Part shown: piece by piece, positions 37,747 to 60,518 of the stretch | Numbering within the stretch: position 1 is the stretch's first letter | Layout of the letters: every line of letters starts with the position of its first letter | From: Scytonema sp. RU_4_4 | GTDB lineage: Bacteria; Cyanobacteriota; Cyanobacteriia; Cyanobacteriales; Nostocaceae | Direction: 5' to 3' | DNA: 61,387 nt | NCBI GenBank assembly: GCA_012031965.1 | Contig: JAAUSC010000009.1 | Span: 1 to 61,387, forward strand | Notes under the pieces: generated by a model | Seen by the model: the letters and a program-made list of their open reading frames with translations, nothing else | Told to the model about the DNA's origin: nothing | The model's database searches: none | Translations under genes and position numbers: made by a program

Positions 37747-37784
37747 ATCAACGTAATAAACGGTTCAGATAAGAAGTTGACGAG

Positions 37785-37960
37785 TGAAGGTAAGCAGAGG
37801 GGCAGAGGGGCAGAGGAGAAATCTGATTCACGTGGATTGGTTTTCCCCTCTGCTCCCCAATACTCGCGCTTCCCCTCCAGGGGCGCTGCGCAAATGCTCT
37901 CTACCCCATCCCCTCCGCTGTCTCAACGAATAAATGTCTTAACTGAACCGTATTGGTTTA
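37785..37960 (+). repeat. Nostoc-type GC-rich interspersed repeat
   Basis: AGAGGGGCAGAGGGGCAGAGG and its partial complement near 37845 (TTTTCCCCTCTGCTCCCC) form an imperfect inverted repeat. Similar sequences are common in Nostocales genomes. Confidence 0.6.
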
Positions 37961-38123
37961 TCACCTACGGGGAGAGGGCGATACGCTTCACGTTGTTCCG
38001 AATCAAACTATAGCCAAATCTCTTGCAGACGAAGAGTTTTTGCAGACAAAAAGTTAATTAATCTGCCACAGCCAAAATTTTACAACCTAAACAACTTCTG
38101 TGACTTACTCAAGGAGAACAAAA

Positions 38124-38540: not shown

Positions 38541-38627
38541 GCTTCCACATCTATAAGCCAGTTTCCAACTAAAACAAACAATAACTGTTTTTGGTGGCGA
38601 CAACTTTAATCTAGTTTGTTTTCAAAG

Positions 38628-38752
38628 CGATTGCGCGGAGCGCAGACGCCAAGGGCGTATCGCATACATAAATCCTAGCACCTGAAATGCGATAAGCCTC
38701 TGGCTTTAGCTTTGCGCGATACGCACAAGCTAAAGCCCGCAGGGGCATCGCT
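38628..38752. repeat. Cyanobacterial interspersed repeat pair
   Basis: GCGATTGCGCGGAGCGCAGA to GTATCGC (first unit) and ATGCGATAAGCCTCTGGC to GGGGCATCGC (second unit). Both are bounded by GCGAT/ATCGC and can fold. Confidence 0.65.
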
Positions 38753-38826
38753 TTTATTGACGCAAGCATGAGAACTCATCGTGAATATAGGTTTTAGCTG
38801 ACAACTTCAGGAGAAACTGAATCATT

Positions 38827-38940
38827 ATGTTGAAAAGATTGATTTTTTCCATAAGTAGTTTATCCGATAAAAGTACAGAAATCCCCAAGCTTGGAGATGA
38901 TGATGACCCAGATGATGATCCAATTGTTCCGCCCAATTAA
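38827..38940 (+). CDS. Small acidic-tailed peptide
   Basis: A 37-residue frame: MLKRLIFSISSLSDKSTEIP, then a tail rich in Asp (GDDDDPDDDPIVPPN). AGGAG lies 13 bases before the ATG. The hydrophobic-basic front and acidic tail resemble a short leader-bearing peptide, and an ABC transporter and secreted proteins lie within 1.5 kb. A role as an exported peptide is speculation. The opposite-strand frame here reads as low-complexity Ser and is not believed. Confidence 0.4.
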   Translation: MLKRLIFSISSLSDKSTEIPKLGDDDDPDDDPIVPPN

Positions 38941-39018
38941 TTTTGGATCTTAATGGCTATAAAGTGCAATCAAATAATTAATTTGGTTTGCTTCCTTACA
39001 TGAAGTTCATGTACAGAT

Positions 39019-40014
39019 TTATTCACTTTCATCGTTCAACGTTCGACGCGCTTCTAATTGCCAAATATTTAATTCCGACAGTTTACAGTCTTGTCCTTTT
39101 AGTTGTTGGTTATCGTAGTCAGATTTCAGGCAGTCTTTCCATGATTCTAAGGCACTTTGCTTTTCTCCTTGAGCTTCTTGGACTTTTGCTAATAAACAGT
39201 GAGTTAGAGGGCGATTGCTATCTAATTTAAGTGACATGAGCAGATGTTTTTTCGCTTGCTTATATAGCTTTTGCTCAAAATATGCCCAGCCGAGGTTCTT
39301 ATGCAATGAAGCTTTCACCATGCTATCTTGAACCCGCAACAAAATTGGCTGAATCATCTCAACGGCTACAGCACTATTTCCTTTGAGAATCGATAAACGA
39401 GCTAGATTATTGATTGCAGCATCAGCAGCCCGGTTGCTATATTTCATCGCAATTTCGTAGTGATGGCAAGCATTGGACAATTCCTCCAGTTTTTCGTAAG
39501 CTGAACCCAGATTGTAGTGAGCTTCCGCAAAATCAGGGTTAAAAGTAATTGCCCATTTTAAATAACATACTGCACTTTGGAAATTCCCCTTTAGGTAGTC
39601 GTTGTGACCAATTTTATTCAAAGATTTAGCGATTTGAGTCTTTTCTTCATCGTCCGAGAGTTGGAACTGCTTTTCCAGGTATTCTTGAACAGGTATATTG
39701 GCTGAAAATAACTGTAACAAGAAATTTTCAGATAAATTTGTACTCGTAAAAGCACGTTCTTGAAGTAACTCTGGTTTGTATTTAGCAAATAAGGCGACTA
39801 AATCAGAGCGTTTGTAGCGACGTCCATCAGAATGTTCATTTTCTAACCCAAATTCCTGACAAATTCTTTCAATATACTTTCTGACTGTAGATTCTCCAAT
39901 GCTCATAGCTTTTGCAATTGCAGCATCTGTCTCACCTGCCAAAATTCTTCTTAACACTTCTTTACGCCTGGGTGACAGATGCTCAAATATTTTTTCAAAC
40001 TCTTGCTGATTCAT
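39019..40014 (-). CDS. LuxR-type HTH protein with TPR repeats
   Basis: 331 residues from MNQQEFEKIF (an upstream in-frame ATG at 40047 would add 11). Residues about 5-65 (HLSPRRKEVLRRILAGETDA, then AIAKAMSIGESTVRKYIERI) form a LuxR/GerE-type helix-turn-helix of the kind often fused to effector or NTPase modules in cyanobacteria. From about 125 to 310 there are four or five TPRs (HNDYLKGNFQSAVCYLKWAI and related units). It probably senses a protein partner and controls a promoter nearby, possibly the divergent ABC transporter operon. Confidence 0.7.
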   Translation of the reverse strand: MNQQEFEKIFEHLSPRRKEVLRRILAGETDAAIAKAMSIGESTVRKYIERICQEFGLENEHSDGRRYKRSDLVALFAKYKPELLQERAFTSTNLSENFLLQLFSANIPVQEYLEKQFQLSDDEEKTQIAKSLNKIGHNDYLKGNFQSAVCYLKWAITFNPDFAEAHYNLGSAYEKLEELSNACHHYEIAMKYSNRAADAAINNLARLSILKGNSAVAVEMIQPILLRVQDSMVKASLHKNLGWAYFEQKLYKQAKKHLLMSLKLDSNRPLTHCLLAKVQEAQGEKQSALESWKDCLKSDYDNQQLKGQDCKLSELNIWQLEARRTLNDESE

Positions 40015-40258
40015 TCTTGATTTCAAATTGCAACCATGTAAAGCCACATCTGTGACTTTATACTAAGTTAACAAAATTTGATTACCTGCTAATGCATCCA
40101 ACTTGACAATCGCAAAATTCTGTGTCACAGTGGTGACTATAAAAACCAGCAACTACGTAAGAAGGCGACCTGCAATGCTAAAGGTTAAAATTTCTCAAAA
40201 ATACTTAGCTTAGTTTGATTTAAGTAAAACGACTGCAATTTTTTCTAGTTTTTGTAGT

Positions 40259-41116
40259 ATGATATACAAATCAAAGTCAGCAAGAGATTATGCAGAAAAT
40301 TATCTTCTTGAACTAAAAAATGTTACATTTAGTTACAGAAACCCGCCAAAGTTATTATTGGAAGATGCCAATTTTCAGCTACTTCCCGGAGAAAAGATTG
40401 GAATTGTAGGAGATAATGGCTCTGGTAAGTCTACTATTGCAAAGTTGTTCCTTGGCTTATGTAAACCCCAGAGGGGGTTTATAAGGTTATTTGGGGAAGA
40501 AGTTTCTTGGGGAAATCACTATCCAATGTTAGGTTATATTGGCGACCCCTCCTATAATCCAGGAGGTTTGGGTTTGCCTACTAATGTTCTAGTTGGGGAT
40601 TTAGTTGATTGTTTCAAGAAGCTTTGGAGTAATTCGATTCAAGATTCGTCTTTAGAGCTAGAAGACCGATTGAATCTGCCTCTTCTTTACAAGAATGACA
40701 TTGGTGTTCTATCGAAAGGGGAGAGGATGAGAGTAATGGCATTTCTCGCATTAAGTAAACAACCTAAGCTGCTAATTGCAGATGAAGCTACAGAAGGCTT
40801 AGATAAAGAAAGTAAAAAAATCATATTATCTGAATTGAAGCGAGCCTTTGAGAGATCAGAATTCGGCATGGTATGGATTTCACACCGTCATCATGAGATT
40901 GCTATTTTGGTTGATCAAGTTTACGAGCTTACTAGTTGTAAATTAAAAAAACACTCTCTAGGTAATTTCAACTGCGAAGTAGAAACTGAATTTAAAACAG
41001 AGACCTATAACAATCTTTCTTATGAAGCTTTCCAGGAGGTCTTTGGGGAAGTTTTTACAAACTCATTGGTTTCTAATTTTAACATTAAGGGAACTCGAAA
41101 GACTCAAACAGAATGA
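40259..41116 (+). CDS. ABC transporter ATP-binding protein
   Basis: A 285-residue ATPase with Walker A GDNGSGKST (residues 51-59), a short signature LSKGERMR, Walker B LLIADEATEGLD and the H-loop WISHRHHE. The 50-residue C-terminal tail is extra. It starts a plus-strand operon with a permease 6 bp downstream and three small secreted or membrane proteins. The half-size ATPase plus single permease fits an export-type (ABC-2-like) transporter. The substrate is unknown; small proteins in the same operon are candidates. Confidence 0.85.
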   Translation: MIYKSKSARDYAENYLLELKNVTFSYRNPPKLLLEDANFQLLPGEKIGIVGDNGSGKSTIAKLFLGLCKPQRGFIRLFGEEVSWGNHYPMLGYIGDPSYNPGGLGLPTNVLVGDLVDCFKKLWSNSIQDSSLELEDRLNLPLLYKNDIGVLSKGERMRVMAFLALSKQPKLLIADEATEGLDKESKKIILSELKRAFERSEFGMVWISHRHHEIAILVDQVYELTSCKLKKHSLGNFNCEVETEFKTETYNNLSYEAFQEVFGEVFTNSLVSNFNIKGTRKTQTE

Positions 41117-41122
41117 AGCGAT

Positions 41123-41944
41123 ATGACTCTTAAAAGGATAGGAATCTTAGTGATTCCAAATATAAAAAGAATGATTGTGTCCCGATACTCATTTTGGGTA
41201 TATGGAATTGTTGGCATTTTTACTTTGATTGATGTTGGTCTTGGTTGGAATGGGCGAAGTGTAACATTATTTTCTATTCCTCTGGAATCATGCTGTAGTT
41301 CAAGAGAGCAAGCTTTGTTAGGAATTTTGCACGAGCATTTTTCTTGGGTATGGGTTTTCATAGCTTTTGTTTTTGTGCTGCCTAAATTGCTATCTCCATT
41401 AGGGGATAGCTTTTTGGTCAGTCATGTTCTTTGGCTTCGCCTTACTTCCTGTCTCTCCTATGAAATTGCAATAGCCAGGGCAGCATTGGTAATAATCTGT
41501 AGTTTGTGGCTTTGTGCTTTGGGATTTTTTTGGGTATTAATCAATTCTTTGTTTCATCAAATTCCACTAATTAAACTGCTCATAGATGTTGAAGGTTTAG
41601 TAAGTTATGTACTCCTATCTAGTGGTATCGTTGTAGCATTAGATTTTGGTCTTTCTATTGATTATTCTGGAAGAAGATTTATTTCTAGCTTTGCCTTTTT
41701 GATTCCTTCCTTACTTCTACTCATTTTTACGTTGATAAGTAATACGAAATACGCGAACTATTTTCCTTATACTATTCCGTTTATAACTGGTGCTCCACCA
41801 TATACTCAATTGTCAGTTGCTATCCCGTATCATTTTGGATCTGCTGCTGTTTTAGGAATTTTATTGCTTTGTTTTCATGTAATGAGTAAAGTTCAGTATT
41901 CACGTATAGAACCTAAAATAGTTGGAGGAACTGAGTTGCCATGA
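41123..41944 (+). CDS. ABC transporter permease
   Basis: A 273-residue integral membrane protein with about six hydrophobic segments (SRYSFWVYGIVGIFTLIDVG, FSWVWVFIAFVFVLPKLLSP, AALVIICSLWLCALGFFWVL, LVSYVLLSSGIVVALDFGLS, FAFLIPSLLLLIFTLIS and a last near the C-terminus). It resembles ABC-2-type or bacteriocin/lantibiotic immunity permeases in size and placement after a lone ATPase, but I cannot name the substrate. It overlaps the next gene by 4 bp (ATGA). Confidence 0.7.
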   Translation: MTLKRIGILVIPNIKRMIVSRYSFWVYGIVGIFTLIDVGLGWNGRSVTLFSIPLESCCSSREQALLGILHEHFSWVWVFIAFVFVLPKLLSPLGDSFLVSHVLWLRLTSCLSYEIAIARAALVIICSLWLCALGFFWVLINSLFHQIPLIKLLIDVEGLVSYVLLSSGIVVALDFGLSIDYSGRRFISSFAFLIPSLLLLIFTLISNTKYANYFPYTIPFITGAPPYTQLSVAIPYHFGSAAVLGILLLCFHVMSKVQYSRIEPKIVGGTELP

Positions 41945-42369
41945 AAACATTGAATAAGAAAGTTGTCATATTCTGCTTCTGCTCTACATTCCTATTGATA
42001 TCGTTAGTAATAGGAGGTAAACCTGCTGTAGCATCAGTAGGAGAAATTTTTTGGAACGTTATCTATTGGATTGGAGATTCGCTTGCAAAAACTTCAGTGG
42101 GTCAGTTTATTGAAAAGGGATTTAATGCAATTTTCAGTTTCTTTGATATTCATTTTGGCAAGCATATAGCGCCTGATTACTGGGGAGCACTTACAGGAAG
42201 CTATTCTAGTGACATGGGTTTTAAAGTCAATATAGATGGAGTAGATTATTCATGCAATCTTCCTAACCCTAGAATGCACCGAGATTCAGTTGATTCCCCT
42301 TGGCAGCTTGACTCATTTGAAGAAACGTTCTTGAGAGATTGTGGTGAGACTCTAAACAAAGGTTATTAA
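41941..42369 (+). CDS. Secreted protein, family A of the chimeric trio
   Basis: 142 residues with a signal peptide (MKTLNKKVVIFCFCSTFLLI, ending PAVAS). The C-terminal 65 residues (APDYWGALTGSYSSDMGFKV, then NIDGVDYSCNLPNPRMHRDS, then a Cys near the end) recur in the next gene. Two conserved Cys could form a disulfide. It is coupled to the permease by an ATGA overlap and so belongs to the transporter operon. No known family is recognised. Confidence 0.6.
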   Translation: MKTLNKKVVIFCFCSTFLLISLVIGGKPAVASVGEIFWNVIYWIGDSLAKTSVGQFIEKGFNAIFSFFDIHFGKHIAPDYWGALTGSYSSDMGFKVNIDGVDYSCNLPNPRMHRDSVDSPWQLDSFEETFLRDCGETLNKGY

Positions 42370-42868
42370 CTGCAATCAAGAGAACAAGATGAACAGACTG
42401 ATTCAGATTGCTAACGAAATCGTTGCTGTGTTAAATGTACTTCTTTTTCTATATGGAAGTATTGAATTTTCTCGTTTTGAAGCAGCAGAACTTCTTCCAA
42501 CAGTTGGCGGGTATATAGCTCCTGACTACAGAGGAGCGCTTACAGGAAGTTATTCTACTGACATAAGTTTTAAAGTCAATATAGATGGAGTAGATTATTT
42601 ATGCAGCCTTTATAAACCTATAATGCATCGAGATTCAGTTGATTCCCCTTGGCAGCTTGACTCATCTGAAGATACTTTCTTGAGAAATTGTGGTAAAACC
42701 ATAAAGCAAAATTTATTAACTGCAATGAAGAGGAAAAATGAAGAAACTAATTCGGATTATTAGCGGAATCTTTGCTGTGTTAAGTGTACTTCTTTTTCTA
42801 TATGGAAGTATTGAATTTTCTCGTGTTGAAGCAGCGGAACCTCTTCCAAAAGTTGACGTTGATATTCC
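42170..42868 (+). repeat. Tandem duplication, unit about 350 bp
   Basis: The segment from about 42170 to 42519 repeats from about 42520 to 42868 (for example TTAAAGTCAATATAGATGG at 42221 and 42570). Each unit includes the 3' part of one gene and the 5' part of the next, so the middle gene is a hybrid. Confidence 0.85.
42389..42763 (+). CDS. Hybrid protein: N-terminus of the next gene, C-terminus of the previous gene
   Basis: A 124-residue protein. Residues 1-33 (MNRLIQIANEIVAVLNVLLF, then LYGSIEFSRFEAAE) match the start of the 42738 product. Residues 43-105 (APDYRGALTGSYSTDISFKV, then MHRDSVDSPWQLDS) match the end of the 41941 product. The fusion follows directly from the 350-bp tandem duplication. 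It has one N-terminal membrane or signal segment. It overlaps the next gene by 26 bp. It may be a functional variant or a by-product. Confidence 0.65.
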   Translation: MNRLIQIANEIVAVLNVLLFLYGSIEFSRFEAAELLPTVGGYIAPDYRGALTGSYSTDISFKVNIDGVDYLCSLYKPIMHRDSVDSPWQLDSSEDTFLRNCGKTIKQNLLTAMKRKNEETNSDY

Positions 42869-43013
42869 TGGAGTTAAGTTTGAGCGTCAGTCCGCGAAAG
42901 AGCAAGATAAAGAATCTGTTCAGACTCTAATTGGAGTTTCTATCGTAGGTTTTGTAGCAAGTGTCGCTGGTTTTGTGCTTAGTTCAGGCAAAAGTGTTGA
43001 AGAGACCAAATAG
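42738..43013 (+). CDS. Small membrane protein, family B of the chimeric trio
   Basis: A 91-residue protein. An N-terminal hydrophobic segment (IISGIFAVLSVLLFLYGSIE) and a C-terminal one (TLIGVSIVGFVASVAGFVLS) flank a short polar loop. It is the last gene of the transporter operon. Its N-terminal segment is copied in the hybrid gene before it. No function is known. Confidence 0.6.
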   Translation: MKKLIRIISGIFAVLSVLLFLYGSIEFSRVEAAEPLPKVDVDIPGVKFERQSAKEQDKESVQTLIGVSIVGFVASVAGFVLSSGKSVEETK

Positions 43014-43116
43014 CAAGGCTATTTTATTCTAAAAAGTTGCAGGAGTGTGTCTAGACCAAAGGAGCATAGTCGTTGCGCTTGAGCCATGTTTTCAAACCCT
43101 AGGTCAAAAAGAAGAA

Positions 43117-43285
43117 GTCAGAATTTAGAATTCAGGAGTCAGAATGCAATTAGTGAGGGCTTGAACCCACCACTAATTGAAGACCGCCAAATCTTCGATT
43201 TGGTGGGGGCGGTGAGTACCCCCAAATCATCCACCACTCGCACAGAATTCAGAATGAATTCTGGCTCCTGACTCCTGACTGCTTT
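43117..43285. mobile_element. MITE-like inverted-repeat element
   Basis: AGAATTTAGAATTCAGGAGTC on the left is complementary to GAATTCTGGCTCCTGACTCC on the right. The inside holds CCCACCACTAATTGAAGACC and GGTGGGGGCGGTGAGTACCC, as in small repeats of Nostoc. No coding capacity. Confidence 0.6.
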
Positions 43286-43394
43286 CTTGATCACGATACA
43301 AGTTGAGAGCAAAATTACGAGCGATCGCCAAAATCTGGGGCAAAGGGGCAGGGCTATTTCATTCTAAATAATACCAATTTTATGTGAAGTTGAT

Positions 43395-43580
43395 ATTACT
43401 GATAGCAGCGCTAGGATAGTACACTTGATATCAAAACTGATAGCAGTACCTGTCAGTTCGCAGACTATTTGAAAATTCTGTCGCGTAACCTTTATGCTGT
43501 CATGATACCAGAGTGAGCACGTTTTGTTCAGGTTTTCCCTCGGAGTGAGACAGTAATTGATGGGAGAATTAAACAATAGC
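43395..43580 (+). repeat. Block homologous to 12485-12575 with a 95-bp insertion
   Basis: The left part (GATATCAAAACTGATAGCAG) and right part (GTGAGACAGTAATTGATGGG) match the 12.5-kb copy. The segment 43450-43545 is absent from the other copy. Confidence 0.7.
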
Positions 43581-48078: not shown

Positions 48079-49167
48079 TCATGACTGTACAATAGAAGAA
48101 ACAGGCGATCGCCGTTTTCTCATCTTGAGTTGATAGTAAATCATTGCTTGTGAGGTCATGTCAACGATATCGTCAGTATCGTAAACCCCAAACTTGACAA
48201 ACTCTATTTTGACACTTTCTAGCCAGCCTACACCATCTTTGATGTGAAAGTTGCCGGACTCAAAAGCAGGAGCTATAAGCTGCGCTCGCTGCTCTTTGCT
48301 GCCAAATTCATCAGGATTAAATGCTAATACACCTGGGAATTCTTCTTGCAACTTCTCAATCATCGCTGCACCAGAAGCTTTTTTCTCTATCAATTTGGTT
48401 GCGATAATGCCGTAAACAGGTTCGTTTCTGTTAATCAGTTCTCTGATGCCTTTTTGCGCGTCGTTAAAGCCACAGCGTTTGTGGAAAAGGTCTATCAAGT
48501 AGAAGTTGGGATAGGCGATCGCAAACAAGCCTACAGACACAAATGACGCTGTGGTTGATGTAGAGCCAAAGGACAAGTCACCGCTGATAATGAGTTCATA
48601 TCTAGCTGGCAATTCCGTAAAAGTTTGCCAGACTGCTTTACTGAAAACGCCACCTTCTAATGGTGCTGGTTCTTGGTCATGGCGAGCGCTGTAAGCATAT
48701 GCACCTAAATCTCGCTTGGCTTCTGCGTCTTCTTCCTCTCCAAAACGATGAGGATGTAGCAACTCGCCTGCTTTGCGCTCTACAACAGTCTTAGAACGTG
48801 GGAAAACGACTGTTTCATTTTTGCGAGCGCGGGTGGGTAGTTTGACAATCTTAAAACGTCTGCTAGGGTCTTTTTCCTCTGCGGCTGTCTTAATGATGTA
48901 GCCACTTACGTCGCTCTCGTGCGTTCGCTGTTGTACAACAATTGTCTTAGTCCGCTTCGGGTCGTTGGCTCTTGTTGTCAAGTAGTTCTTAAACTTGGTT
49001 AACGCTCCCTCTCTGACTACATCTGACTCTTTCTCTGGATTATTGGGATCATCACAATTGTGAATCAAAATACCTCCAGCAAAGTAGTTTCTATTGGCGG
49101 TCGCTATATTGTAGGTTTGTTCTGGTGCAGGCTTTCGCTTAATAGCCTTAACAATTTTTCTTTGCAT
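48079..49167 (-). CDS. Terminase large subunit, C-terminal half, with split-intein IntC
   Basis: A 362-residue protein. Residues 1-37 are an IntC: block F YNIATANRNYFAGG and block G GILIHN, followed by extein Cys38. From there the terminase continues CDDPNNPEKESDVVREGALT, with TIVVQQRTHESDVSGYI (coupling region) and a nuclease domain containing SGDLSFGSTSTTASFV, LIDLFHKRCGFND and DTDDIVDMTSQAMIYY, which supply the acidic residues. Trans-splicing with the 54967-55782 product would rebuild a 500-residue enzyme with the Walker B text GTYII-CDDP. The two halves lie 5.8 kb apart with cargo between. Confidence 0.9.
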   Translation of the reverse strand: MQRKIVKAIKRKPAPEQTYNIATANRNYFAGGILIHNCDDPNNPEKESDVVREGALTKFKNYLTTRANDPKRTKTIVVQQRTHESDVSGYIIKTAAEEKDPSRRFKIVKLPTRARKNETVVFPRSKTVVERKAGELLHPHRFGEEEDAEAKRDLGAYAYSARHDQEPAPLEGGVFSKAVWQTFTELPARYELIISGDLSFGSTSTTASFVSVGLFAIAYPNFYLIDLFHKRCGFNDAQKGIRELINRNEPVYGIIATKLIEKKASGAAMIEKLQEEFPGVLAFNPDEFGSKEQRAQLIAPAFESGNFHIKDGVGWLESVKIEFVKFGVYDTDDIVDMTSQAMIYYQLKMRKRRSPVSSIVQS

Positions 49168-49328
49168 TGCTCCCTCTGTTCAGTTGATCCATGCAACCCA
49201 CCGTGGCAAGTGTGACAAAGTGCCACAAGGTTAAGTGGGCTGTTGTTGGCGTTGAGCCGAAATCTCTGCAAAAACGGAAATCTAGGCTGAAAAAGCTCAT
49301 CATATATAGGTTTCAGCTTTTTACTTCT
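49104..49328 (-). pseudogene. HNH endonuclease relic upstream of IntC
   Basis: In a frame different from IntC, the DNA reads RLNANNSPLNLVALCHTCHG followed by GLHGSTEQREQ. This is the second half of an HNH motif (Asn, then C-x-x-CH). The front half, with the first His pair, is missing, and the frame meets a stop at 49331. The terminase intein therefore once had an HNH homing domain between IntN and IntC, later broken by the cargo insertion. Confidence 0.75.
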
Positions 49329-49518
49329 CTATTTTAACCAAATACAAGAAGGCTACAAGCAGACACATCTTAGTACATAGTTACTAGTTCATCCAGTTTG
49401 AACTCAGATACCAACTTCTGACCTGTTGTTGGGAAAACACTCAAGGACTGAAGCAATGCTTCGCCAACGTGTCTTACTTTTACCCCAACTGAATACAAAA
49501 TTTGCTTTCCTCAAATAA

Positions 49519-52500
49519 TTAACCATCGCCCTTTCGATTTGCAGTACCAATGCCATTGCAGAGTTGCTTGTCGCTATCGCTAACATTGGGATTTGTCTGT
49601 AAATAGCCGCGTACCCAATCGCAACCGCGTGCCAGTAGATTGTCAAGAGTTAAATTCGATAACGCTTTTAAATCCCATAAAATAACTGTTCCAGACCTAC
49701 TCCCTGAAGCTAGCAGTCGCCCATCTGGACTGAAACTAATGCTTTTAACCTCAGCCTTTGCATTGAAGATATTAATTTTTTTATGGGTGGCGACATCCCA
49801 AAGTATGATAGTGTTGTCATTGCTAGCAGAAGCCAGTACGCGCCCGTCAGGGCTAAAGCTGACGCTGTTAACCCCAGCCTTGTGTCCGGTAAGGGTAGCA
49901 AGTTCTTTACCTGTGGCTACATTCCATAATTTGATGGTTGTTGTCTCACCAGCGGAAGCCAGCAGTCGCCCGTCGGGGCTAAAGCTGGTAGTGTTAACTT
50001 CACCTCTGTGTCCGGTGAGGGTAGCAATTATTGTACGTGTGGCTACATCCCACAGTTTAATAGTTTGATCGCGACTGGCAGAAGCTAGTAGTCGCCCGTC
50101 CCGACTGAAACTGACTGCAGTGATCGTATCCTTATGCCCAGTCAAGGTGCGAATTTCTTTGCCTGTGGCGACATCCCTGAGCTTAACAGTTCTGTCCCAA
50201 CTATCGGAAGCTAGATATTTTCCATCAGGACTAAAACTGACGCTATTTACCCAATGTTTATGTTCAAAGAAAGTCTTGATTGGTTGACCAGTAGCAACAT
50301 CCCAGAGTTTAACAGTTCCGTCCCAACTACCGGAAGCTAGATATTTTTCATCAGGACTAAAACTGACGCTACTTACCCAATGTTGATGGCCCATGAAAGT
50401 CTTGCTTTGTTGACCAGTAGCGACATCCCAAAGTTTGACGCTGCTTTCTTTATCACTAGAAGCCAGTCGTCGCCCATTGGGGCTAAAACTAACACTAAAG
50501 ACATAATCGTCATAGCTAGAGAGACTTTTGACTTCTAGACGCTGGGCGATATACCACAGTTTGATACTACGGTCGCTACTAGCGGAAGCTAACCATTGCC
50601 CATCGGGACTGAATCTAATATTATGAACCATAGCGCTATGTCCAGTCAAGCTAGGTATTTTTTTGAGTGTGTCAACATTCCAAAGGTTGATGTCATAGTT
50701 AAAACCGCTAGCAGCCAAAAGTTGACCATTGGGGCTGAAACTGAGGTTCGTAACTCGCTCGTTACCTGTAAAATTAGGGAGATCGGCAAATTTCGTGCGT
50801 GTGGCAACATTCCAGAGTATGACGCTGCCACCATCACCGCCTGAAGCCAGCAATTGCCCATCTGGGCTGAAACTGACGCCACAGACCCAAGGGTAATGCT
50901 GCATATTGCTAGGAATTTCTTTGTAGGTAGTGATATCCCAGAGTTTGACCGTACCGTCAAGACTAGCAGAAGCCAGCAGTCGCCCTTTTGGGCTGAAACT
51001 GACGCCATCGACCCTATCTTTATGTCCAATGAGGGTAGCTATTTTTTGGCGGGTGGCGACATTCCAAAGTTGGATGGTGTTTCCTTTACAGGCAAAAGCC
51101 AGTAGTTGCCCATCTGGGCTGAAACTGACGCCATTATTGCCCTGATCGTCAGCCTGATACCCGCTGAAAGTAAAGATTTCTTTGCCAGTTGTGATATCCC
51201 AGAGTCTAACAGTTTTGTCACCGACGCTGGCAGAAGCCAAGGTTTTGCCATCAGGGCTGAAACTAACAACAGTGACCACATCATTATGCCCAGTCAAGGT
51301 GCTAATTTCTTTGCCAGTGGCGACATCCCACAGTTTGATAGTTTTATCAGCACTAGCAGAAGCCAAGGTTTTGCCATTAGGGCTGTAGCTAACACTAATG
51401 ACTCTAGCTTTGTGCTTTTCCAAGCGGTTTCGCTCTTTCACCCCATAAATTGCCTGTTGTAACGCAACTTTAAGCTGAAACTGCATATCGGAATTTACCC
51501 CGAATGCTGCCTGTTTGACTTGCTTGCCCGCATTTAGGCTTGCCAGCAGCGCATCAAATTCTTTATTTGAGTCAAATAGTTCTTCTGAGGCAGTCGTAAG
51601 ACCAGTAATGGTTTGTTGTCTTTGAAATTCTGTAGACAGCCAGCCCAACCCAGCTGCACCAGCTAGAATCAACGCAACTACAGAAAAGCTAGTAAGCCCT
51701 ATAATAGTTTTGCGCCGTTGGCGATCGCGCAATCCCACACTAGCATCAATAAATTGGTTTGCTGCATCATTAAATCCCCCCAGAACTTGATTAAATGTCG
51801 CGTCTTTTCTAAGTTCTAAAATTTGTTCCAACTTTGAGCCATTCCATAGTTCATCATCTGCTTTTTGGAACTTCCAAAGTGCTACATCATCATTGAGTCG
51901 GTTACGAAGAGCTATAGCTTGACGATTTTGCTTAATCCAAGTATTCAAAGTTGTCCAAGAAGTCAGCAGGATTTCATGGGTAATGTCTACTGTAGATTCT
52001 TGGGATTGTGGCTCTTGGTCACTCACCAAAAGATTTTCATTTATCAACTTAGCTAGCACGCTTTGTTCAAGTTCATCATTAAACTCAGACTTCAATGCCC
52101 TTCTGCGGACTGGCTTCCACTCAGTACCAAATTCAGTATCTTTACCAATGTCAACCAGTTTTAGAAAAATTCTTTGAGTTGCGAACTTTTCCACTTCTGG
52201 TAAGCTGTCATAGATGTAATCTATATGTTTTTGTAGCGCACCCCTGACCCCACCTATTTGTCGGTAAGTACTAATGCTTAGTGTACGGTCATTGATACTA
52301 TTAGTTTCTACTTCTATTTCCCAAAGTAAATTCAGGGTGTACTGTAATAACGGTAGATAACCTGCTTGCCCCTGTACGTCTTTAATGATTTCTTCTACTA
52401 GTCCAGTTTCAAACACTACACCATGATGAGCAGCAGGTTGTTCAATCGCCAACCGCAACTCATCGGGTTGCATTTCTGCAATCAGTGGACGATGCTTATC

Positions 52501-53262
52501 CGTAGCTTTTACCAATCGAGGATAGGGGCTTAGTTTGTCAAGAAAATCAGCCCGCATCGTTACCATGATTTTGATAGAACGCTCCTTTGTTTTACTCAAT
52601 TTTGCTAAATTGGTAATAAACTGGTCACGTTTCTCCGACTGACTGGTAGTGAATAATTCCTCAAACTGGTCAATAAAAATAAACCAATAATCATCAGGCT
52701 GCTTCAGCCTTGTCACCACTTGAGTCAGCGTATCCGCTTTAGCTTCACGGGCAATTTGGGCTTCTGCTTGCTTGTATTTTCCCAGTAAACTGGCATAAAA
52801 AGATTCAAATGGGTCAGTATCTGGAGTAAACATTAAGTTAACTAACCGTGACCCAAATTTTTGTGACAGCCACGGAATTAAACCCGCACGCACTACTGAT
52901 GACTTGCCACTACCACTAGCTCCCAAAAGCAAAATTAGATTGGTTTGTTCCAATTCATTTAGCAAACCTTTAAGAAATTGATCCCGACCGAAAAATAAGT
53001 CTTTATCTGCTGGCTCGAATTTCTTCAAGCCCTTATAAGGTGAAGTAACTATAATTTTACGGGTTTTAATCTCTTCAATAGAGATTTGCAAAATCTTTGT
53101 TTCGTTAAAAGTAACAATATTAATATCACCTTGAACCTGGATATTACCATCACCTATAATAGCTTGCATTCCACTATCAAATGTGGAATTATCAGCCTGT
53201 ATTTGAATAATTGGCTGTTGGGTAAATGGTAAATCATCTGGAGGATACTCTTGCTGATTCAT
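49519..53262 (-). CDS. nSTAND NTPase with WD40 repeats
   Basis: A 1247-residue protein. Residues about 15-60 include the repetitive MQAIIGDGNIQVQGDINIV. SPYKGLKKFEPADKDLFFGR leads into the NTPase, with Walker A GASGSGKSS (114-122) and Walker B YWFIFIDQFEELF (about 192-204). A helical region follows, then one hydrophobic helix (KTIIGLTSFSVVALILAGAA), then about 14 WD40 repeats (for example GHNDVVTVVSFSPDGKTLAS). STAND NTPases are molecular switches of bacterial innate immunity and cell death. It is transcribed after the CHAT gene, and together they look like a two-gene conflict module. Confidence 0.85.
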   Translation of the reverse strand: MNQQEYPPDDLPFTQQPIIQIQADNSTFDSGMQAIIGDGNIQVQGDINIVTFNETKILQISIEEIKTRKIIVTSPYKGLKKFEPADKDLFFGRDQFLKGLLNELEQTNLILLLGASGSGKSSVVRAGLIPWLSQKFGSRLVNLMFTPDTDPFESFYASLLGKYKQAEAQIAREAKADTLTQVVTRLKQPDDYWFIFIDQFEELFTTSQSEKRDQFITNLAKLSKTKERSIKIMVTMRADFLDKLSPYPRLVKATDKHRPLIAEMQPDELRLAIEQPAAHHGVVFETGLVEEIIKDVQGQAGYLPLLQYTLNLLWEIEVETNSINDRTLSISTYRQIGGVRGALQKHIDYIYDSLPEVEKFATQRIFLKLVDIGKDTEFGTEWKPVRRRALKSEFNDELEQSVLAKLINENLLVSDQEPQSQESTVDITHEILLTSWTTLNTWIKQNRQAIALRNRLNDDVALWKFQKADDELWNGSKLEQILELRKDATFNQVLGGFNDAANQFIDASVGLRDRQRRKTIIGLTSFSVVALILAGAAGLGWLSTEFQRQQTITGLTTASEELFDSNKEFDALLASLNAGKQVKQAAFGVNSDMQFQLKVALQQAIYGVKERNRLEKHKARVISVSYSPNGKTLASASADKTIKLWDVATGKEISTLTGHNDVVTVVSFSPDGKTLASASVGDKTVRLWDITTGKEIFTFSGYQADDQGNNGVSFSPDGQLLAFACKGNTIQLWNVATRQKIATLIGHKDRVDGVSFSPKGRLLASASLDGTVKLWDITTYKEIPSNMQHYPWVCGVSFSPDGQLLASGGDGGSVILWNVATRTKFADLPNFTGNERVTNLSFSPNGQLLAASGFNYDINLWNVDTLKKIPSLTGHSAMVHNIRFSPDGQWLASASSDRSIKLWYIAQRLEVKSLSSYDDYVFSVSFSPNGRRLASSDKESSVKLWDVATGQQSKTFMGHQHWVSSVSFSPDEKYLASGSWDGTVKLWDVATGQPIKTFFEHKHWVNSVSFSPDGKYLASDSWDRTVKLRDVATGKEIRTLTGHKDTITAVSFSRDGRLLASASRDQTIKLWDVATRTIIATLTGHRGEVNTTSFSPDGRLLASAGETTTIKLWNVATGKELATLTGHKAGVNSVSFSPDGRVLASASNDNTIILWDVATHKKINIFNAKAEVKSISFSPDGRLLASGSRSGTVILWDLKALSNLTLDNLLARGCDWVRGYLQTNPNVSDSDKQLCNGIGTANRKGDG

Positions 53263-53329
53263 CAGTTTATCCTACTTATTTGAATGTTACTATGCTATAA
53301 TTTCCCCTTTCTCGACTAGACAAAATCGA

Positions 53330-54361
53330 TTACTCGACTTGCTCCAAATTTTCTATAAACGGTATTACCAAAGTTACTAGAGGATGATTAATTTCATTTT
53401 TTAGAGCTTCCAAACCATTTACTTTTAGTTCTCTAATGACGCAAGATTTCAAATTTGGGCTATTTTCAATTTTTTTAACAGCTTTAGCAACAACTATCAG
53501 TTTTTCAGTGCTTGTTTTAGTAGGATAAGTCTGCTCTAGTTGTTGTAAAATTTGTTGAATTCCCTTTGCGACTTCTACCAGATTTGACTTTTGTTTAGGA
53601 ACAGCATTGTTAGTCATAGTTTGCACATTATTGTCACCCTGTGTCGCTTGTATCCCACCGCCTATGTTACCGCCGCTAATGTTGAAAGAAATTCCACTAC
53701 TTCGTTTTTGTTGTGATTCTTTTTCTGACTTAACATCTGATTTCATAGCTTGTTTAACAGAAATAGAAGATGGTCTAGATTTGAGTACTGGTGTTAAATT
53801 TTCCTTGCTGTCTTTTAGTTGAATAGCAGTACGTCCCATGTTAAAAGCATAGTCATAACTTTCAAGAGCACTCAAAGCATCATAAAAACCAGTGGCAAAC
53901 TCGATTGCAGCTACATCCCCAATTGGCTGATTCATACCAATTACATAATCAACGTGTTGATGAATTGCTTGTGCTTGAACTTCGCTATAGCAGGCGTTAA
54001 GTAGGACACACTCAACTGTTCCACGAAACAACTCAAACAAACTTGCGAGAGCTTCGCTACTTACCAGTTGCGTTATCCCAGAATTATCCTCAAATGCTAA
54101 ACCCCCTGTTCCCGCTCCATGTCCGGAAAAATGAACGATATGAGGCTGGTGATCTAACATTGCACGGCGCAAGTCTTCCACTCGTACCGCCCAATAAGTA
54201 GCAATTTCAAACTGATATCGATGTTTCGCTAGTTTCAGCGCTTCCTGGATTTTCCGTGCCTCTTCCCCCAAGCGCAAAAGGTTTGTGTTCTTGGGATTTG
54301 CCGATAATATTAAGATTTTTTTCACGTTATTATGGTTCGTGAGAAATTTGTTAACGTTCAA
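53330..54361 (-). CDS. CHAT-domain caspase-like protease with C-terminal adaptor
   Basis: A 343-residue protein. Residues about 14-185 are the CHAT domain (VKKILILSANPKNTNLLRLG) with catalytic His81 (HFSGHG) and Cys124 (LLNACYSE). Residues about 220-245 contain FNISGGNIGGGIQATQGDNN, a repetitive motif like the GDGNIQVQGDINI of the neighbouring nSTAND protein. A helical C-terminal domain of about 90 residues follows. It probably acts as the effector released or activated by the nSTAND partner. It lies 67 bp upstream of that gene. Confidence 0.85.
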   Translation of the reverse strand: MNVNKFLTNHNNVKKILILSANPKNTNLLRLGEEARKIQEALKLAKHRYQFEIATYWAVRVEDLRRAMLDHQPHIVHFSGHGAGTGGLAFEDNSGITQLVSSEALASLFELFRGTVECVLLNACYSEVQAQAIHQHVDYVIGMNQPIGDVAAIEFATGFYDALSALESYDYAFNMGRTAIQLKDSKENLTPVLKSRPSSISVKQAMKSDVKSEKESQQKRSSGISFNISGGNIGGGIQATQGDNNVQTMTNNAVPKQKSNLVEVAKGIQQILQQLEQTYPTKTSTEKLIVVAKAVKKIENSPNLKSCVIRELKVNGLEALKNEINHPLVTLVIPFIENLEQVE

Positions 54362-54769
54362 GCCTTAATACAAACTGAGCATACTATTTTTCGGAATTTT
54401 GGTTTGTTTCTCAAAAAGCAATTACCAAAACAGCTTTCTTTCGTAGCTCTGGGTCACTCCATGAAGATAATTAAAATAAACGCCCTTAAAAATATTTTGT
54501 AAATACCAACTAATAACCGAATCTTGGTAAAACGAGAAAAAATTGGCATACTGGCAGCAACGCTAACCCTTGTTTCGTCGAGTTTCGCCGTATGTCTGCA
54601 CGCTCATACCTTACTCAATCCCCAATCATCAAAAGTTGGTAAGCTGCTGCGCTTTTAATTTGCACATTATTTTTATCGAGTCAATGCTTAAAACCCTCTT
54701 CCCTTCTGCCGTCTGCCTTCTGACTTCTGCCTTGCTGTTGTACATTAAAAATGCACAACAGCTTAAACG
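54362..54769. other. Non-coding upstream region of the CHAT/nSTAND pair
   Basis: AT-rich sequence that probably carries the promoter, then a Nostoc-type pyrimidine-rich repeat (about 54700-54740, CTTCTGCC units). No gene is seen. Confidence 0.5.
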
Positions 54770-54966
54770 GAAAAAAGTGAGCCTGCTGTCTCCAGGCGCA
54801 AGTCTCCGAATCAACGCAGATATAACGAGATGAAAAAACTGCCCTAGATATGGTGGTTTGAGATGTGCCTGACAAAGCACCAAGATGTTGAGGAGCGGAA
54901 TGAAAGCAAACTTTCACGTTCCGTTTTGAAGACCAGCAGGGCTGGCGACAGCCTTGCTGAGTTTAA
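54770..54966 (+). other. Probable group II intron fragment at the cargo boundary
   Basis: From 54893 the plus strand reads GAGGAGCGGAATGAAAGCAA, then CTTTCACGTTCCGTTTTGAA, then GACCAGCAGGGCTGGCGACA. In my recollection this resembles the segment that precedes the reverse-transcriptase frame in bacterial group II introns. The fragment ends where the IntN frame begins (54967). Both intron ends and any RT gene are missing. Confidence 0.45.
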
Positions 54967-55782
54967 TCAAAGGCACAATACAGCATCTCCAGGTTCCATA
55001 TCACCTGCTTTGATATAACCTTTGCCCTCTACCCAAACTGGATGGTCGTTCGTGCATTCAAGAATACTACCATCCTCTAACTCAATTTCTATAATTTCCC
55101 TACCTGGGTTTTCTTCATATCTGAGTATGGGTTGCCATTCGACTTCGCCCGTTTCATGGTTGAAAGTTGCCACGTCAACGTCAAGCTTTTTGTTAACGAT
55201 GTCGCCAATAGGAATTTCACCCCGCGATGTCGTTATCCTCTGATGTGACGGCAAACAAATAATATAAGTTCCCCCAACGCCAGTCACAGAGCCGTCCAAA
55301 CCACGGGCATATATAATACCACCAGAGTTGTTGCTATATTCCGTGATGCGGTTCCGATTATCACTAAGAACGCAGCGACCGCGTGACAAACGCTGATACC
55401 ATTCTGATTCGATAACCTGTCGGCGCTTGTAGCTCAAGTCGTTTGCCAAAGGAGTCGAATAGCTCATGCACAGGAACGACGCCCAAGGCTGACGTAACCA
55501 TACCCAGCATGGGAAAAAGACAGATACAAGCAATGATTTCAGCGAGCGCGGCATCACATTGACGAGTAAGCGTCTAGTGTTGCCGAGTGCTACATCAGTC
55601 AAAATTTCTGCTATGTATGCATGATGCCAATTCCAATCCAGGGGCGTGTTAGGCTCCAAAACTGCCCACGCCCCTGGATGCTTGTCATCATAACCTCTGA
55701 TAAATTTCTCAAAGTCACGTCTGAGAATTTCCCTAATTGCTAACTCTCGCCGTGCTAGTTCTTGTTTGTTAAACTGTCCCAC
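54967..55782 (-). CDS. Terminase large subunit, N-terminal half, with split-intein IntN
   Basis: A 271-residue protein. Residues 1-175 are the terminase ATPase front: a helical start, Walker A-like NVMPRSLKS (about 75-83), the motif CMSYSTPLANDLSYKRRQV, and DGSVTGVGGTYII. Residue Cys176 begins IntN (CLPSHQRITTSRGEIPIGDI), with block B SILECTNDHPVWVEGKGYIK, ending GDAVLCL and stop. The break is exactly at Walker B, so neither half can hydrolyse ATP until trans-spliced with the 48079-49167 product. It lies 6 bp after the small subunit. Confidence 0.9.
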   Translation of the reverse strand: MGQFNKQELARRELAIREILRRDFEKFIRGYDDKHPGAWAVLEPNTPLDWNWHHAYIAEILTDVALGNTRRLLVNVMPRSLKSLLVSVFFPCWVWLRQPWASFLCMSYSTPLANDLSYKRRQVIESEWYQRLSRGRCVLSDNRNRITEYSNNSGGIIYARGLDGSVTGVGGTYIICLPSHQRITTSRGEIPIGDIVNKKLDVDVATFNHETGEVEWQPILRYEENPGREIIEIELEDGSILECTNDHPVWVEGKGYIKAGDMEPGDAVLCL

Positions 55783-55788
55783 AATTAA

Positions 55789-56352
55789 CTAACCACCGCT
55801 GGCAATTTTCTCTAGCTCCTCATCAGATAACTGTGTAGGGTCAAATAAATCAGCATCAATATCTGTAGACATCGGCAAAACATTGATGACGCGCTCGCCC
55901 ATCCTATCAGCTAACACTTTTACTGTTTGATGATATACTTCAGGTGGTAAATTTTGATAAGCGTACATCATTAAATCAATCAGCTTGTTGTCTACTGCTA
56001 CCTCGATTCTTTGGGTGTTCGCCCATCTCTCAGGACGCTGACGCTCTAACCACCACGCCGCTGCCCTCCAGTCGTTTGTGGATGCCGTCATGATGCGAGC
56101 GCTTAACGTTATTTCAGCCGCTACAACCGCTCGGTTCAACTCTTCTGCAAACTCTGCAAACTCATTGCTAGTAGGACGCTCATGTGTGCCTTCACCACGC
56201 CGTACCCACTCGCGTACAGTCTTATGACTAACCCCCGCATAATAGCAAGCGTTCTCAATCCCTACGCCCGCTTTAATCGCCTGTAACAGTTTTTGTTTTG
56301 TTTCTTCTGTTAACTTAGACGGTCGTCCTGGTCGAGCCGCTTTTTTGCTCAT
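55789..56352 (-). CDS. Terminase small subunit
   Basis: A 187-residue protein. The N-terminus (RPGRPSKLTEETKQKLLQAI, then IENACYYAGVSHKTVREWVR) is a homeodomain-like HTH of the TerS family. A central helical region (FAEELNRAVVAAEITLSARI, then WRAAAWWLERQRPERW) and an acidic C-terminal tail follow. TerS recognises packaging sites and feeds DNA to TerL. Its stop is 6 bp from the TerL-N start, the normal terminase gene order. Confidence 0.85.
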   Translation of the reverse strand: MSKKAARPGRPSKLTEETKQKLLQAIKAGVGIENACYYAGVSHKTVREWVRRGEGTHERPTSNEFAEFAEELNRAVVAAEITLSARIMTASTNDWRAAAWWLERQRPERWANTQRIEVAVDNKLIDLMMYAYQNLPPEVYHQTVKVLADRMGERVINVLPMSTDIDADLFDPTQLSDEELEKIASGG

Positions 56353-58838: not shown

Positions 58839-59525
58839 CTAACCAACCTGCAAATTAGACCAGCGCCAGATGCATTCTACTTGATGAAAACCAGCGTTTT
58901 TTAATGCTTGTTCATTAGCGCTCGCAGTCCAAGGAACTAGTACACCTTCAAGGCTTAATCGTTTGCGCTGTATCTCATAATCTGAATAGCCGTTTTCTGC
59001 CTTTAATTCATAATAAATGTTTGTTATGAGATCATCAACTGTAGCTGTCGCTCCGATGACCTTTTCTACTAACACAAATGCCCCGTTTCTGTGCAAGCTA
59101 TTATAAATACGTTGTAGTAACTTCATTCTATGCTCTACAGGAACAAATTGAAGTGTAAGGACAGAGAGTACAACATTAGCTTTAACATCTAGGAACTGGG
59201 AGCGCAAGTCTAAATCATGCACTGTAACGTTTTTGTAATCAGCAAAACGCTCTGTCAAAGCTGCAAGCATTGAAGGTGAATTATCAATGAGATGAAATGA
59301 ACACTCAGGAAGTTTTACAAGCGGCGCGATCGCCTCACCCTTACTTGCACCTATATCTATCAATACACCACCCTTTGAGAGGAATTTAAGCGCAATTGCT
59401 GACACAAGCGCTCTCATATTGGAATAGTCAGGTATAGAGCGTTGTAACATTTCGTCAAATGCATCAGCTACACGCTCATCAAATCGCCACTGATTAGCTG
59501 GGAAAACAATATCTTTGTCATGCAT
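58839..59525 (-). CDS. SAM-dependent methyltransferase (CmoA-like)
   Basis: A 228-residue class I methyltransferase. WRFDERVADAFDEMLQRSIP is the opening typical of CmoA and related enzymes, GGVLIDIGASKGEAIAPLV is motif I, HLIDNSPSMLAALTERF is motif II, and ANVVLSVLTLQFVPVEHR is motif IV. CmoA transfers carboxymethyl groups to tRNA wobble uridine; phage relatives may act on other substrates. It overlaps the preceding cytosine methyltransferase by 8 bp. The substrate here is unknown. Confidence 0.65.
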   Translation of the reverse strand: MHDKDIVFPANQWRFDERVADAFDEMLQRSIPDYSNMRALVSAIALKFLSKGGVLIDIGASKGEAIAPLVKLPECSFHLIDNSPSMLAALTERFADYKNVTVHDLDLRSQFLDVKANVVLSVLTLQFVPVEHRMKLLQRIYNSLHRNGAFVLVEKVIGATATVDDLITNIYYELKAENGYSDYEIQRKRLSLEGVLVPWTASANEQALKNAGFHQVECIWRWSNLQVG

Positions 59526-60518
59526 TGATGGACACCTTTAGTAGTTGATTGCTGACAACAGTTGCGAGCGCTCGCATTAGAAACGGTGGTACGGCTCTAC
59601 CTAGTCTCTCCCATTGTTCCGAAAGGCTACCGGGCAAGTAAAAATCGCTTGGAAATGTGCAGATGATTTTGAGTTCATCAATTGTGAACTGCCTGCGCTC
59701 GCCTTGCATTGTCTCTATCCAGCCGCCGCCGCTAAAGTATGCTGTTTCTTTGCGCTCGTAGTCGTTTGCCATAATAGTGGGCGATGCATTTAAACCAGCA
59801 GCTTTGTAGTTATTAGCTTTGCCGCTAAACTTGACGAGTTTGATATGAGGTAGCACGTCCTTGACAGTGTAATGATATTTCAAGGGTGAGGGAAACACAG
59901 GTTCTAGTCCTAAATCATTACGGAAGCCCACATAAAACAAGCGTTGACGCATCTGAGGAACGCCTAACCATTGAGCATCTAGAACAGATGCCTTGACCCT
60001 GTAGCCACAGTTTCTAAGCGCTTCTATGATGTCTAGGAAATAGCCTTTAGCAGCACCCTTGACTAATCCTGAGACGTTCTCAGCTATAAATGCTTTGGGC
60101 TGTAAGTCCTTTAGTATCCTTGCGTACTCAAAAAACAAGTCATCTGAGCGTTGGCTAACATCTCCTGAGTATTTCTTTGTTTTGCCCAGCCCTTTGAGCG
60201 AGCGCCAGCCGTTGAGAATGACTGGCAAGGGGGTGAGCCGTCTAAAATGTCAATCTCTCCTACTTGGTTTAAGATGTCCTGGGCTTGCACTTCTCTAACG
60301 TCACGTGTATCCAGATAAGTGTTAGGATGATTTGCTTTGTACGCTGCGATCGCTTCAGGTACAAACTCAACGGCATAGACGACATCACAGCCAGCCAACT
60401 TGTAACCCAGACTAGAGCCGCCGCAACCAGAGAACAAAGATGCAACTCTTAAACCATTCTTTTCTATGTTTGCAATCTCTTTCATTGTTGGGAGCGCGAA
60501 CGCTGGCTTATTGCTCAT
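59518..60518 (-). pseudogene. Cytosine-5 DNA methyltransferase split by a -1 frame change
   Basis: Frame 0 from 60518 gives motif I (VASLFSGCGGSSLGYKLAG) and motif IV (LDGSPPCQSFSTAGARSKGW), then fails. The -1 frame takes over near 60184-60190 with GKTKKYSGDVSQRSDDLFFE, motif VI (AENVSG), motif VIII (QMRQRLFYVG) and the C-terminal motif. Joined, the enzyme has about 330 residues with all motifs. The junction is a short G-run followed by AAAACAAAG, consistent with loss of one G. As written, neither half would be active unless frameshifting occurs. Confidence 0.75.

What the first reader, a model, noticed from the sequence alone, without database searches (positions are those of the whole stretch)
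48079..55782. Terminase large subunit split by a split intein, with a CHAT caspase and nSTAND-WD40 cassette between the halves
TerL-N (54967-55782) ends in a 96-residue IntN, and TerL-C (48079-49167) starts with a 37-residue IntC. Splicing would join GTYII to CDDP and recreate the Walker B box, giving a 500-residue enzyme. The 5.8 kb between the halves holds a CHAT protease and an nSTAND-WD40 switch, which resembles an immune or cell-death module. Split inteins in fractured genes are known (Dassa and colleagues, 2009), with a homing endonuclease between the halves. Here the space is occupied by conflict genes. The cassette becomes physically tied to an essential virion gene: losing the DNA between the halves risks breaking terminase, and packaging depends on protein trans-splicing. 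I know of no described example of this arrangement.
Basis: partly seen in the sequence, partly recalled or inferred. Interest (0 to 1): 0.93.

Follow-up and report, generated by a model that had tools for sequence, protein, structure and literature searches.

The report
Immune genes inside split phage terminase
In a circular phage-like element of a cyanobacterium, the gene for the DNA-packaging motor is cut in two by a protein-splicing element, and the selfish DNA-cutting gene that relatives carry between the halves has been replaced by a pair of immune-type genes.

Summary
TerL-N ends in a 96-aa IntN, TerL-C starts with a 37-aa IntC, and their profile matches abut exactly. Between them lie a CHAT protease gene and an nSTAND1-WD40 gene. 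The window is a circular element of about 61.26 kb in the genus of Brasilonema. Relatives give an allelic series: an intact intein-free TerL in Scytonema plasmid2; the same split intein with an HNH endonuclease between the halves (L005); the window, which keeps only the last 145 bp of that HNH gene; and Brasilonema UFV-L1, with the same stump and right border but a caspase-nSTAND1-WD40 gene, read across one contig break. Another relative has the halves fused as a mini-intein. So this is a fractured terminase gene whose homing endonuclease was replaced by exchangeable immune cargo. The idea that the cassette is tied to terminase for protection is not supported: the gap is permissive. Trans-splicing is inferred; both halves are under purifying selection. 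The kind is known; the cargo swap was not found described in the searches made.

The parts
55789..56352 (-). terminase small subunit
   Evidence: phrog_4102 E 2e-35
55258..55782 (-). N-extein of terminase large subunit (ATPase half, 175 aa)
   Evidence: phrog_38 and phrog_4758; dS 0.079, dN 0.002 against Brasilonema UFV-L1
54967..55257 (-). IntN, 96 aa, with stop codon
   Evidence: TIGR01445 E 6.1e-11; NrdJ-1 intein 8ubs E 1.2e-9; C176, T244, H247 invariant in 6 of 6
54459..54642 (-). left flank of the cassette: dispersed Brasilonema repeat, present at the same site in UFV-L1 (83%)
53330..54361 (-). CHAT protease gene, 343 aa (a GTG at about 54325 may be the true start, by comparison with two chromosomal homologues)
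   Evidence: Pfam CHAT 5.1e-11; PADLOC chat 2e-18; homologues on C156 (83% aa over 215) and C384 (59% over 335)
53627..53656 (-). RHIM/BASS-like motif GIQATQGDNN in the CHAT tail
   Evidence: block shared with the STAND head, 0 of 500 column shuffles reach it; a regex written after seeing the two motifs finds only these two places in six frames of the window
49519..53262 (-). nSTAND1 NTPase with WD40 propeller, 1247 aa
   Evidence: Pfam nSTAND1 2e-110 and WD40 2e-147
53143..53172 (-). RHIM/BASS-like motif GMQAIIGDGN at the STAND N-terminus
49249..49441 (-). right flank of the cassette: repeat fragment, present at the same site in UFV-L1 (about 92%)
49104..49248 (-). stump of the HNH homing endonuclease gene (last 145 bp; overlaps the start of TerL-C)
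   Evidence: 98% identical to positions 717-861 of the L005 HNH gene
49057..49167 (-). IntC, 37 aa, start codon inside the former HNH gene
   Evidence: H36 N37 C38 invariant in 6 of 6; no nonsynonymous change among window, L005, UFV-L1
48079..49056 (-). C-extein of terminase large subunit (325 aa, rest of Walker B and nuclease domain), with stop codon
   Evidence: phrog_38 5.2e-33; dS 0.232, dN 0.007 against UFV-L1

Best explanation
The window is a circular phage-like plasmid of a Brasilonema-genus cyanobacterium. Its packaging ATPase TerL is made as two proteins that carry the halves of a natural split intein; they are expected to associate, trans-splice and give a 500-aa TerL with its Walker B box rebuilt (sequence shown, splicing inferred). 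The intein came into an intact TerL gene with an HNH homing endonuclease encoded between, and overlapping, the halves, as a close relative still shows (by comparison). In this lineage the endonuclease gene, all but its last 145 bp, was replaced by DNA of Brasilonema type that carries a CHAT protease and an nSTAND1-WD40 receptor (replacement shown; donor inferred). The cassette can be exchanged: UFV-L1 has the same stump and right border but a caspase-nSTAND1-WD40 gene (shown, across one contig break). The CHAT tail and the receptor head share a RHIM/BASS-like motif. The likely action is that of an NLR pair: WD40 senses a trigger, nSTAND1 oligomerises on nucleotide, its N-terminal motif templates the CHAT tail, and clustered CHAT cleaves targets to stop growth or kill the cell, which would exclude other phages (inferred). 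The intein does not drive the cassette and the cassette does not hold terminase hostage: a disused homing-endonuclease slot in a trans-spliced gene is a place where foreign DNA can sit inside a packaging gene without breaking it.
For: Halves and intein. Circular element (127-bp terminal direct repeat) with partition, replication, head and tail genes. Intact allele in Scytonema plasmid2. HNH allele in L005. HNH stump in the window. Second cassette in UFV-L1. Upstream of the site, 5 of the first 6 blocks of 100 bp are 65-80% identical to the intein-free allele (the other 94%), then 86-99% over fourteen blocks; downstream the first ten blocks are 90-99%, as one-sided co-conversion by homing would leave. 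Purifying selection on both halves between two cassette carriers, summed 58 synonymous to 7 nonsynonymous changes. Host-type cassette: chromosomal pair and paralogues, near-equal G+C (0.418 and 0.420), CHAT with no hit in 50,697 phage records but hits in 85 of 72,556 plasmid records at E 1e-5. Shared motif.
Against: No splicing, expression or immunity assay exists. The cassette could be silent cargo. The UFV-L1 cassette spans two contigs joined only by inference. The shared left border with UFV-L1 is only four bases beyond the point where L005 departs. Window and UFV-L1 may have recombined, so their divergence need not all date from after the replacement. With the two window sequences alone the shared motif is weaker (35 of 2000 shuffles reach it). 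CHAT against C156 gives dN/dS about 0.16, which speaks for the family, not for function in this element.
Confidence: 0.82

Rival explanations
1. The element is a decayed phage remnant: the terminase is broken, the intein halves are relics, and the immune genes are random chromosomal debris.
For: HNH lost; transposase genes elsewhere in the element; a cytosine methyltransferase reads as two overlapping frames where Scytonema has one gene; UFV-L1 cargo interrupted by a transposase gene.
Against: Both TerL halves are full length with intact splicing residues and strong purifying selection (58 synonymous to 7 nonsynonymous between window and UFV-L1); small terminase subunit, portal-like (weak match), head and tail genes are present.
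Confidence: 0.12
2. The TerL halves work as two separate polypeptides that assemble without splicing, as described for a nuclease-split ribonucleotide reductase.
For: A gene in pieces that works as two peptides is cited in PMC10448857 (passages seen).
Against: The break lies inside the Walker B box; IntN and IntC residues needed for splicing are invariant in 6 of 6; IntC has no nonsynonymous change among the three close relatives.
Confidence: 0.05
3. The arrangement is selected: the cassette benefits from lying inside an essential gene, by tight linkage, by protection from loss, or by giving the element immunity in place of homing.
For: Two different immune cassettes at the same site in two elements with a shared right border; intact CHAT and STAND frames in the window.
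Against: Relatives lose or change the DNA between the halves without losing TerL (CT11 fusion, L219, L040); a second island outside terminase also holds a CHAT protein; the UFV-L1 cargo is interrupted.
Confidence: 0.2
4. Assembly chimera: the cassette was joined to terminase by mis-assembly.
For: Draft genome of 400 contigs with dispersed repeats at the cassette flanks.
Against: A different strain, UFV-L1, has the same right flank, HNH stump and TerL-C in one contig; the window contig closes on itself.
Confidence: 0.03

Closest known systems
Fractured genes with split inteins and an intervening homing endonuclease (Dassa et al. 2009, doi 10.1093/nar/gkp095; paper not held; content recalled, entry seen in reference lists)
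   Same: Essential phage-type gene in two genes, each with an intein half; an endonuclease gene between them in the close relative L005.
   Different: In the window the endonuclease is reduced to a 145-bp stump and replaced by an immune gene pair.
Split PolB intein with HNH gene between the halves in jumbo phage MIJ3 (PMC6892783, passages seen)
   Same: HNH gene between the halves of a split intein in a phage gene, as in L005.
   Different: Other host gene; only an HNH gene is reported between the halves.
AceL-TerL and GOS-TerL naturally split inteins (PMC11766414, passages seen)
   Same: Natural split inteins of TerL that trans-splice in the laboratory.
   Different: Atypical split with IntN of 25 and 37 aa; here IntN is 96 aa and IntC 37 aa.
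Bacterial amyloid-signalling (BASS) NLR pairs, some with CHAT effectors (PMC7889193, passages seen)
   Same: Adjacent effector and NLR genes, shared motif on the effector C-side and at the NLR N-terminus, filamentous cyanobacteria.
   Different: Amyloid formation untested here; the pair sits inside a phage gene.
TerL inteins of mycobacteriophages (PMC5050341, passages seen)
   Same: Inteins in the ATPase domain of TerL near functional motifs; five tested ones splice.
   Different: No split form or cargo in the passages seen (the word split does not occur).

Membership tests
Natural split intein (class 1) | IntN and IntC in separate genes, each fused to one half of the same host protein | tested here: met
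Natural split intein (class 1) | Cys1, block-B Thr and His, penultimate His, last Asn, Cys+1 (roles recalled) | tested here: met
   invariant columns of A1 and A2, 6 of 6
Natural split intein (class 1) | trans-splicing activity | not testable with these tools
   needs protein expression
Fractured gene (Dassa type) | intervening homing endonuclease gene | tested here: not met
   only a 145-bp stump in the window; present in L005
Fractured gene (Dassa type) | intein-free allele at the same site in a relative | tested here: met
   Scytonema plasmid2, BAZ19347.1
BASS-type NLR-effector pair | adjacent NLR and effector genes sharing a short motif at NLR N-terminus and effector C-side | tested here: met
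   0 of 500 column shuffles; single-sequence test weaker, 35 of 2000
BASS-type NLR-effector pair | amyloid templating and cell-death output | not testable with these tools
   needs assay
CHAT protease | CHAT domain above the curated score | tested here: met
   Pfam 43.0 bits against cut-off 24
nSTAND1 NTPase | nSTAND1 domain above the curated score | tested here: met
   Pfam 370.5 bits against cut-off 27.1
Phage-plasmid | circular element with phage structural genes and plasmid-type maintenance genes | tested here: met
   127-bp terminal repeat; ParB-like (1.3e-7), replication O-like (1.9e-8), tail sheath, tape measure, head, terminase; relative recorded as plasmid
Phage-plasmid | makes particles | not testable with these tools
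   needs induction and microscopy

The most novel reading that the evidence does not exclude
The gap of a split intein in an essential phage gene is a docking site for exchangeable host-immunity cargo: a selfish endonuclease opens it, and later cassettes, swapped through dispersed repeats at its flanks, turn the homing slot into a superinfection-exclusion locus whose frame is kept by protein trans-splicing.
Probability: 0.25. Interest if true: 0.85.

Novelty: new variant of a known kind. Interest (0 to 1): 0.67.

Why it matters
It gives, in related elements, the states intein-free gene, split intein with endonuclease, endonuclease replaced by immune genes, cargo exchanged, and halves fused. 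That makes the fate of a homing-endonuclease slot directly testable, and suggests that protein trans-splicing lets foreign genes lodge inside an essential packaging gene.

Tried and rejected
Hostage model: rejected as the main reading, because relatives keep TerL with the DNA between the halves absent, short, long or interrupted.

Transposition as the entry route: the cassette flanks are dispersed Brasilonema repeats; in the one place where both flanks lie side by side I saw seven short inverted pairs but no ends that I could define, so the route stays open. A hairpin at the left edge suggested an insertion-sequence end, but its relative on C262 lies between two open frames that did not look like transposases to me (no family search was made on them).

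Promoter and terminator scans gave no clear excess over shuffles (17 against 15.5; 6 against 7.5). Pfam supports HNH in L005 only weakly (0.0019 and 0.0091) and in relatives down to 1.5e-6; at E 0.001 it gave L005 nothing. For the genes with a GIY-YIG-like start (L045, L058, L060, L063) Pfam gave no GIY-YIG match; that label is a recalled motif only. Left out of the split count: two loci (L280, L285) that are split without intein signs. The 69 loci are not freed of near-duplicates (L006 and L087 are one contig); L059, L061, L065 and L074 were not read separately.
Full report
WHAT IS THERE. On the minus strand the window carries, in order, a terminase small subunit (55789-56352), TerL-N ending in IntN (54967-55782), a CHAT gene (53330-54361), an nSTAND1-WD40 gene (49519-53262) and TerL-C starting with IntC (48079-49167). 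The terminase profile phrog_4758 is matched at positions 6-162 by the first half and 163-241 by the second, so the break falls exactly at the intein. IntN resembles the NrdJ-1 intein most among solved structures (1.2e-9). The splicing residues are invariant in six of six aligned sequences.

THE ELEMENT. The contig has a 127-bp terminal direct repeat, so it is most likely a closed circle of about 61,260 bp. It carries ParB-like and replication-O-like proteins, an integrase, tail sheath, tape measure, head, portal-like (weak matches) and terminase proteins. Scytonema sp. NIES-4073 plasmid2 covers 38,655 of 61,387 window bases at 85% identity or more. The host lies in the genus of Brasilonema: the genome with a contig of the same length and the same TerL match as Brasilonema sp. 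UFV-L1 scaffold132 is of the same genus as the window's genome.

ALLELES OF ONE LOCUS. (1) Scytonema plasmid2: one uninterrupted 506-aa TerL, GLGAEYLLF-DDPNN at the site. (2) IMG/VR record 3300035014_000038 (L005): the same two halves, each 98% identical in protein, with a 286-aa HNH gene between them that overlaps the end of one half and the start of the other. (3) The window: the last 145 bp of that HNH gene remain at 98% identity and the rest is replaced by 5.7 kb. (4) Brasilonema sp. UFV-L1: the same HNH stump and the same right flank (92-93% over the shared stretch), and on the left the same four bases after the point where L005 departs, but other cargo: two reverse-strand genes without Pfam match at E 0.001, a caspase-nSTAND1 gene that breaks off, a CopG-like gene and a transposase gene at the contig end, and on the next contig the end of a transposase, the rest of nSTAND1 and WD40 repeats. 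The join of these contigs is inferred: nSTAND1 profile positions 1-148 lie on one and 139-378 on the other, and transposase profile DDE_Tnp_1_6 positions 2-90 on one and 86-125 on the other; the contig ends share no overlap of 15 bases or more. (5) Brasilonema angustatum (L006, L087, one contig): split, with an HNH gene that reads in two frames, so decayed. (6) Brasilonema CT11: the halves are one open frame with a nine-residue linker, a mini-intein. (7) A second UFV-L1 locus (L088): split with HNH. One search of 217 genomes of the family found a TerL-C match at E 1e-30 or better in 11, the own genome included.

HOMING LEFT A TRACE. Window against the intein-free allele: the six blocks of 100 bp upstream of the site are 65, 75, 94, 68, 73 and 80% identical, the next fourteen 86-99%, and the last, at the end of the alignment, 33%; downstream the first ten blocks are 90-99%, after which the alignment leaves the conserved stretch (44, 49, 50, 0%). 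L005 shows the same upstream pattern. This fits one-sided co-conversion when the intein entered.

BOTH HALVES ARE STILL SELECTED. Between window and UFV-L1, neither with an endonuclease gene at this locus, changes are 9 synonymous to 1 nonsynonymous in the N-extein, 6 to 1 in IntN, 0 to 0 in IntC and 43 to 5 in the C-extein. Recombination between the elements could have brought part of this from before the replacement; the synonymous distance differs between genes (0.079 in the N-extein, 0.232 in the C-extein, 0.016 in the small subunit), which itself points to recombination.

THE CARGO. The two genes belong to families present in the host genome: a chromosomal-type CHAT plus nSTAND-WD40 pair lies on contig C384 (59% and 52% identical in protein), and a CHAT gene on C156 is 83% identical over 215 residues. 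CHAT had no hit in 50,697 phage records and hits in 85 of 72,556 plasmid records at E 1e-5, at least 34 of them of Nostoc, Tolypothrix, Calothrix, Microchaete and Acaryochloris. Its G+C (0.418) is close to that of the window (0.420). The flanks are fragments of repeats dispersed in the genus. The CHAT tail and the STAND head share the block GG[IM]QA..G[DN].N.Q; no column shuffle of 500 reaches the observed score, and a regex written after seeing the motifs finds only these two places in six frames of the window. With the two window sequences alone the likeness is weaker (35 of 2000 shuffles reach it). CHAT-bearing BASS pairs are described in PMC7889193 (passages seen); the RHIM likeness is recalled. 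nSTAND1 was named in PMC8195603 (passages seen).

SURVEY OF GAPS. Of 69 loci classed (the window, the hits, and one plasmid; near-duplicates kept), 19 are split, 24 contiguous with an HNH gene in another frame, 17 contiguous without, and 9 partial. Of the 19 split loci, 9 have same-strand HNH sequence between the halves, 6 a gene with a GIY-YIG-like start (motif recalled; two not read separately), 3 a reverse-strand gene (two not read separately), and 1, the window, immune genes. Beyond these, UFV-L1 has immune genes (classed partial because of the contig break), L219 has 37 nt between its two open frames (a frameshift could also explain it), and L040, a contig with a 124-bp terminal repeat, has about 7.0 kb with a replication-initiation gene and an antitoxin-like gene between the halves. 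L034 has its halves near opposite ends of a contig without end repeat, so its gap is unknown. One search adds two loci, L223 and L225, split with HNH. So immune cargo in this slot was seen only in the window and UFV-L1.

WHAT IT WORKS LIKE AND WHAT IT IS. It is a fractured terminase gene with a split intein in which the defining endonuclease is gone. It would work like a trans-spliced terminase plus an independent NLR-type immune pair. No link between the two was found except position. Searches for a described example (split intein with terminase and homing endonuclease; fractured gene; split intein with phage and defence island; TerL inteins) showed none among the listings and passages seen; Dassa et al. 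2009 was not held.

SCORES.

Noticed in passing
L031, L035, L036, L038, L044, L051, L052, L054, L056, L057, L062, L066 and others (24 of 69 loci): TerL-intein genes open in one frame from end to end while an HNH endonuclease is encoded in the +1 frame over the intein, 24 of 24 in the same frame; synonymous shuffles of the HNH frame leave the TerL frame open in 0 to 6 of 2000 (near-duplicates kept, shuffled stretch includes the ends that overlap intein coding). An out-of-frame HNH inside a phage methylase insertion without intein domains is described in PMC11855218 (passages seen). In several split loci (L006, L008, L009, L032, L088) the halves are still in one frame, so stops in such a linker may create the split.
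   Followed up: partly
window 33222-43580: A second variable island between a DNA methylase and the portal-like gene, absent in L005: a TPR-CHAT protein of 988 aa, a DUF4384-like protein (below the curated score), a LuxR-TPR protein and an ABC-type ATPase. Scytonema plasmid2 has a WD40 protein of 1256 aa and other genes there.
   Followed up: partly
window 59518-60518: A cytosine methyltransferase reads as two overlapping frames, where Scytonema plasmid2 has one gene in the matching stretch; decay or sequencing error, not compared base by base.
   Followed up: no
window 16044-17315: TnpB-like (OrfB_IS605) gene in a stretch without match at 85% in Scytonema plasmid2.
   Followed up: no
window 54640-54766: A repeat of about 127 bp at the left of the cassette, with further copies on many contigs of the host genome.
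   Followed up: no
L064 9306-9965: In this split TerL the gene between the halves lies on the opposite strand and has no Pfam match.
   Followed up: no
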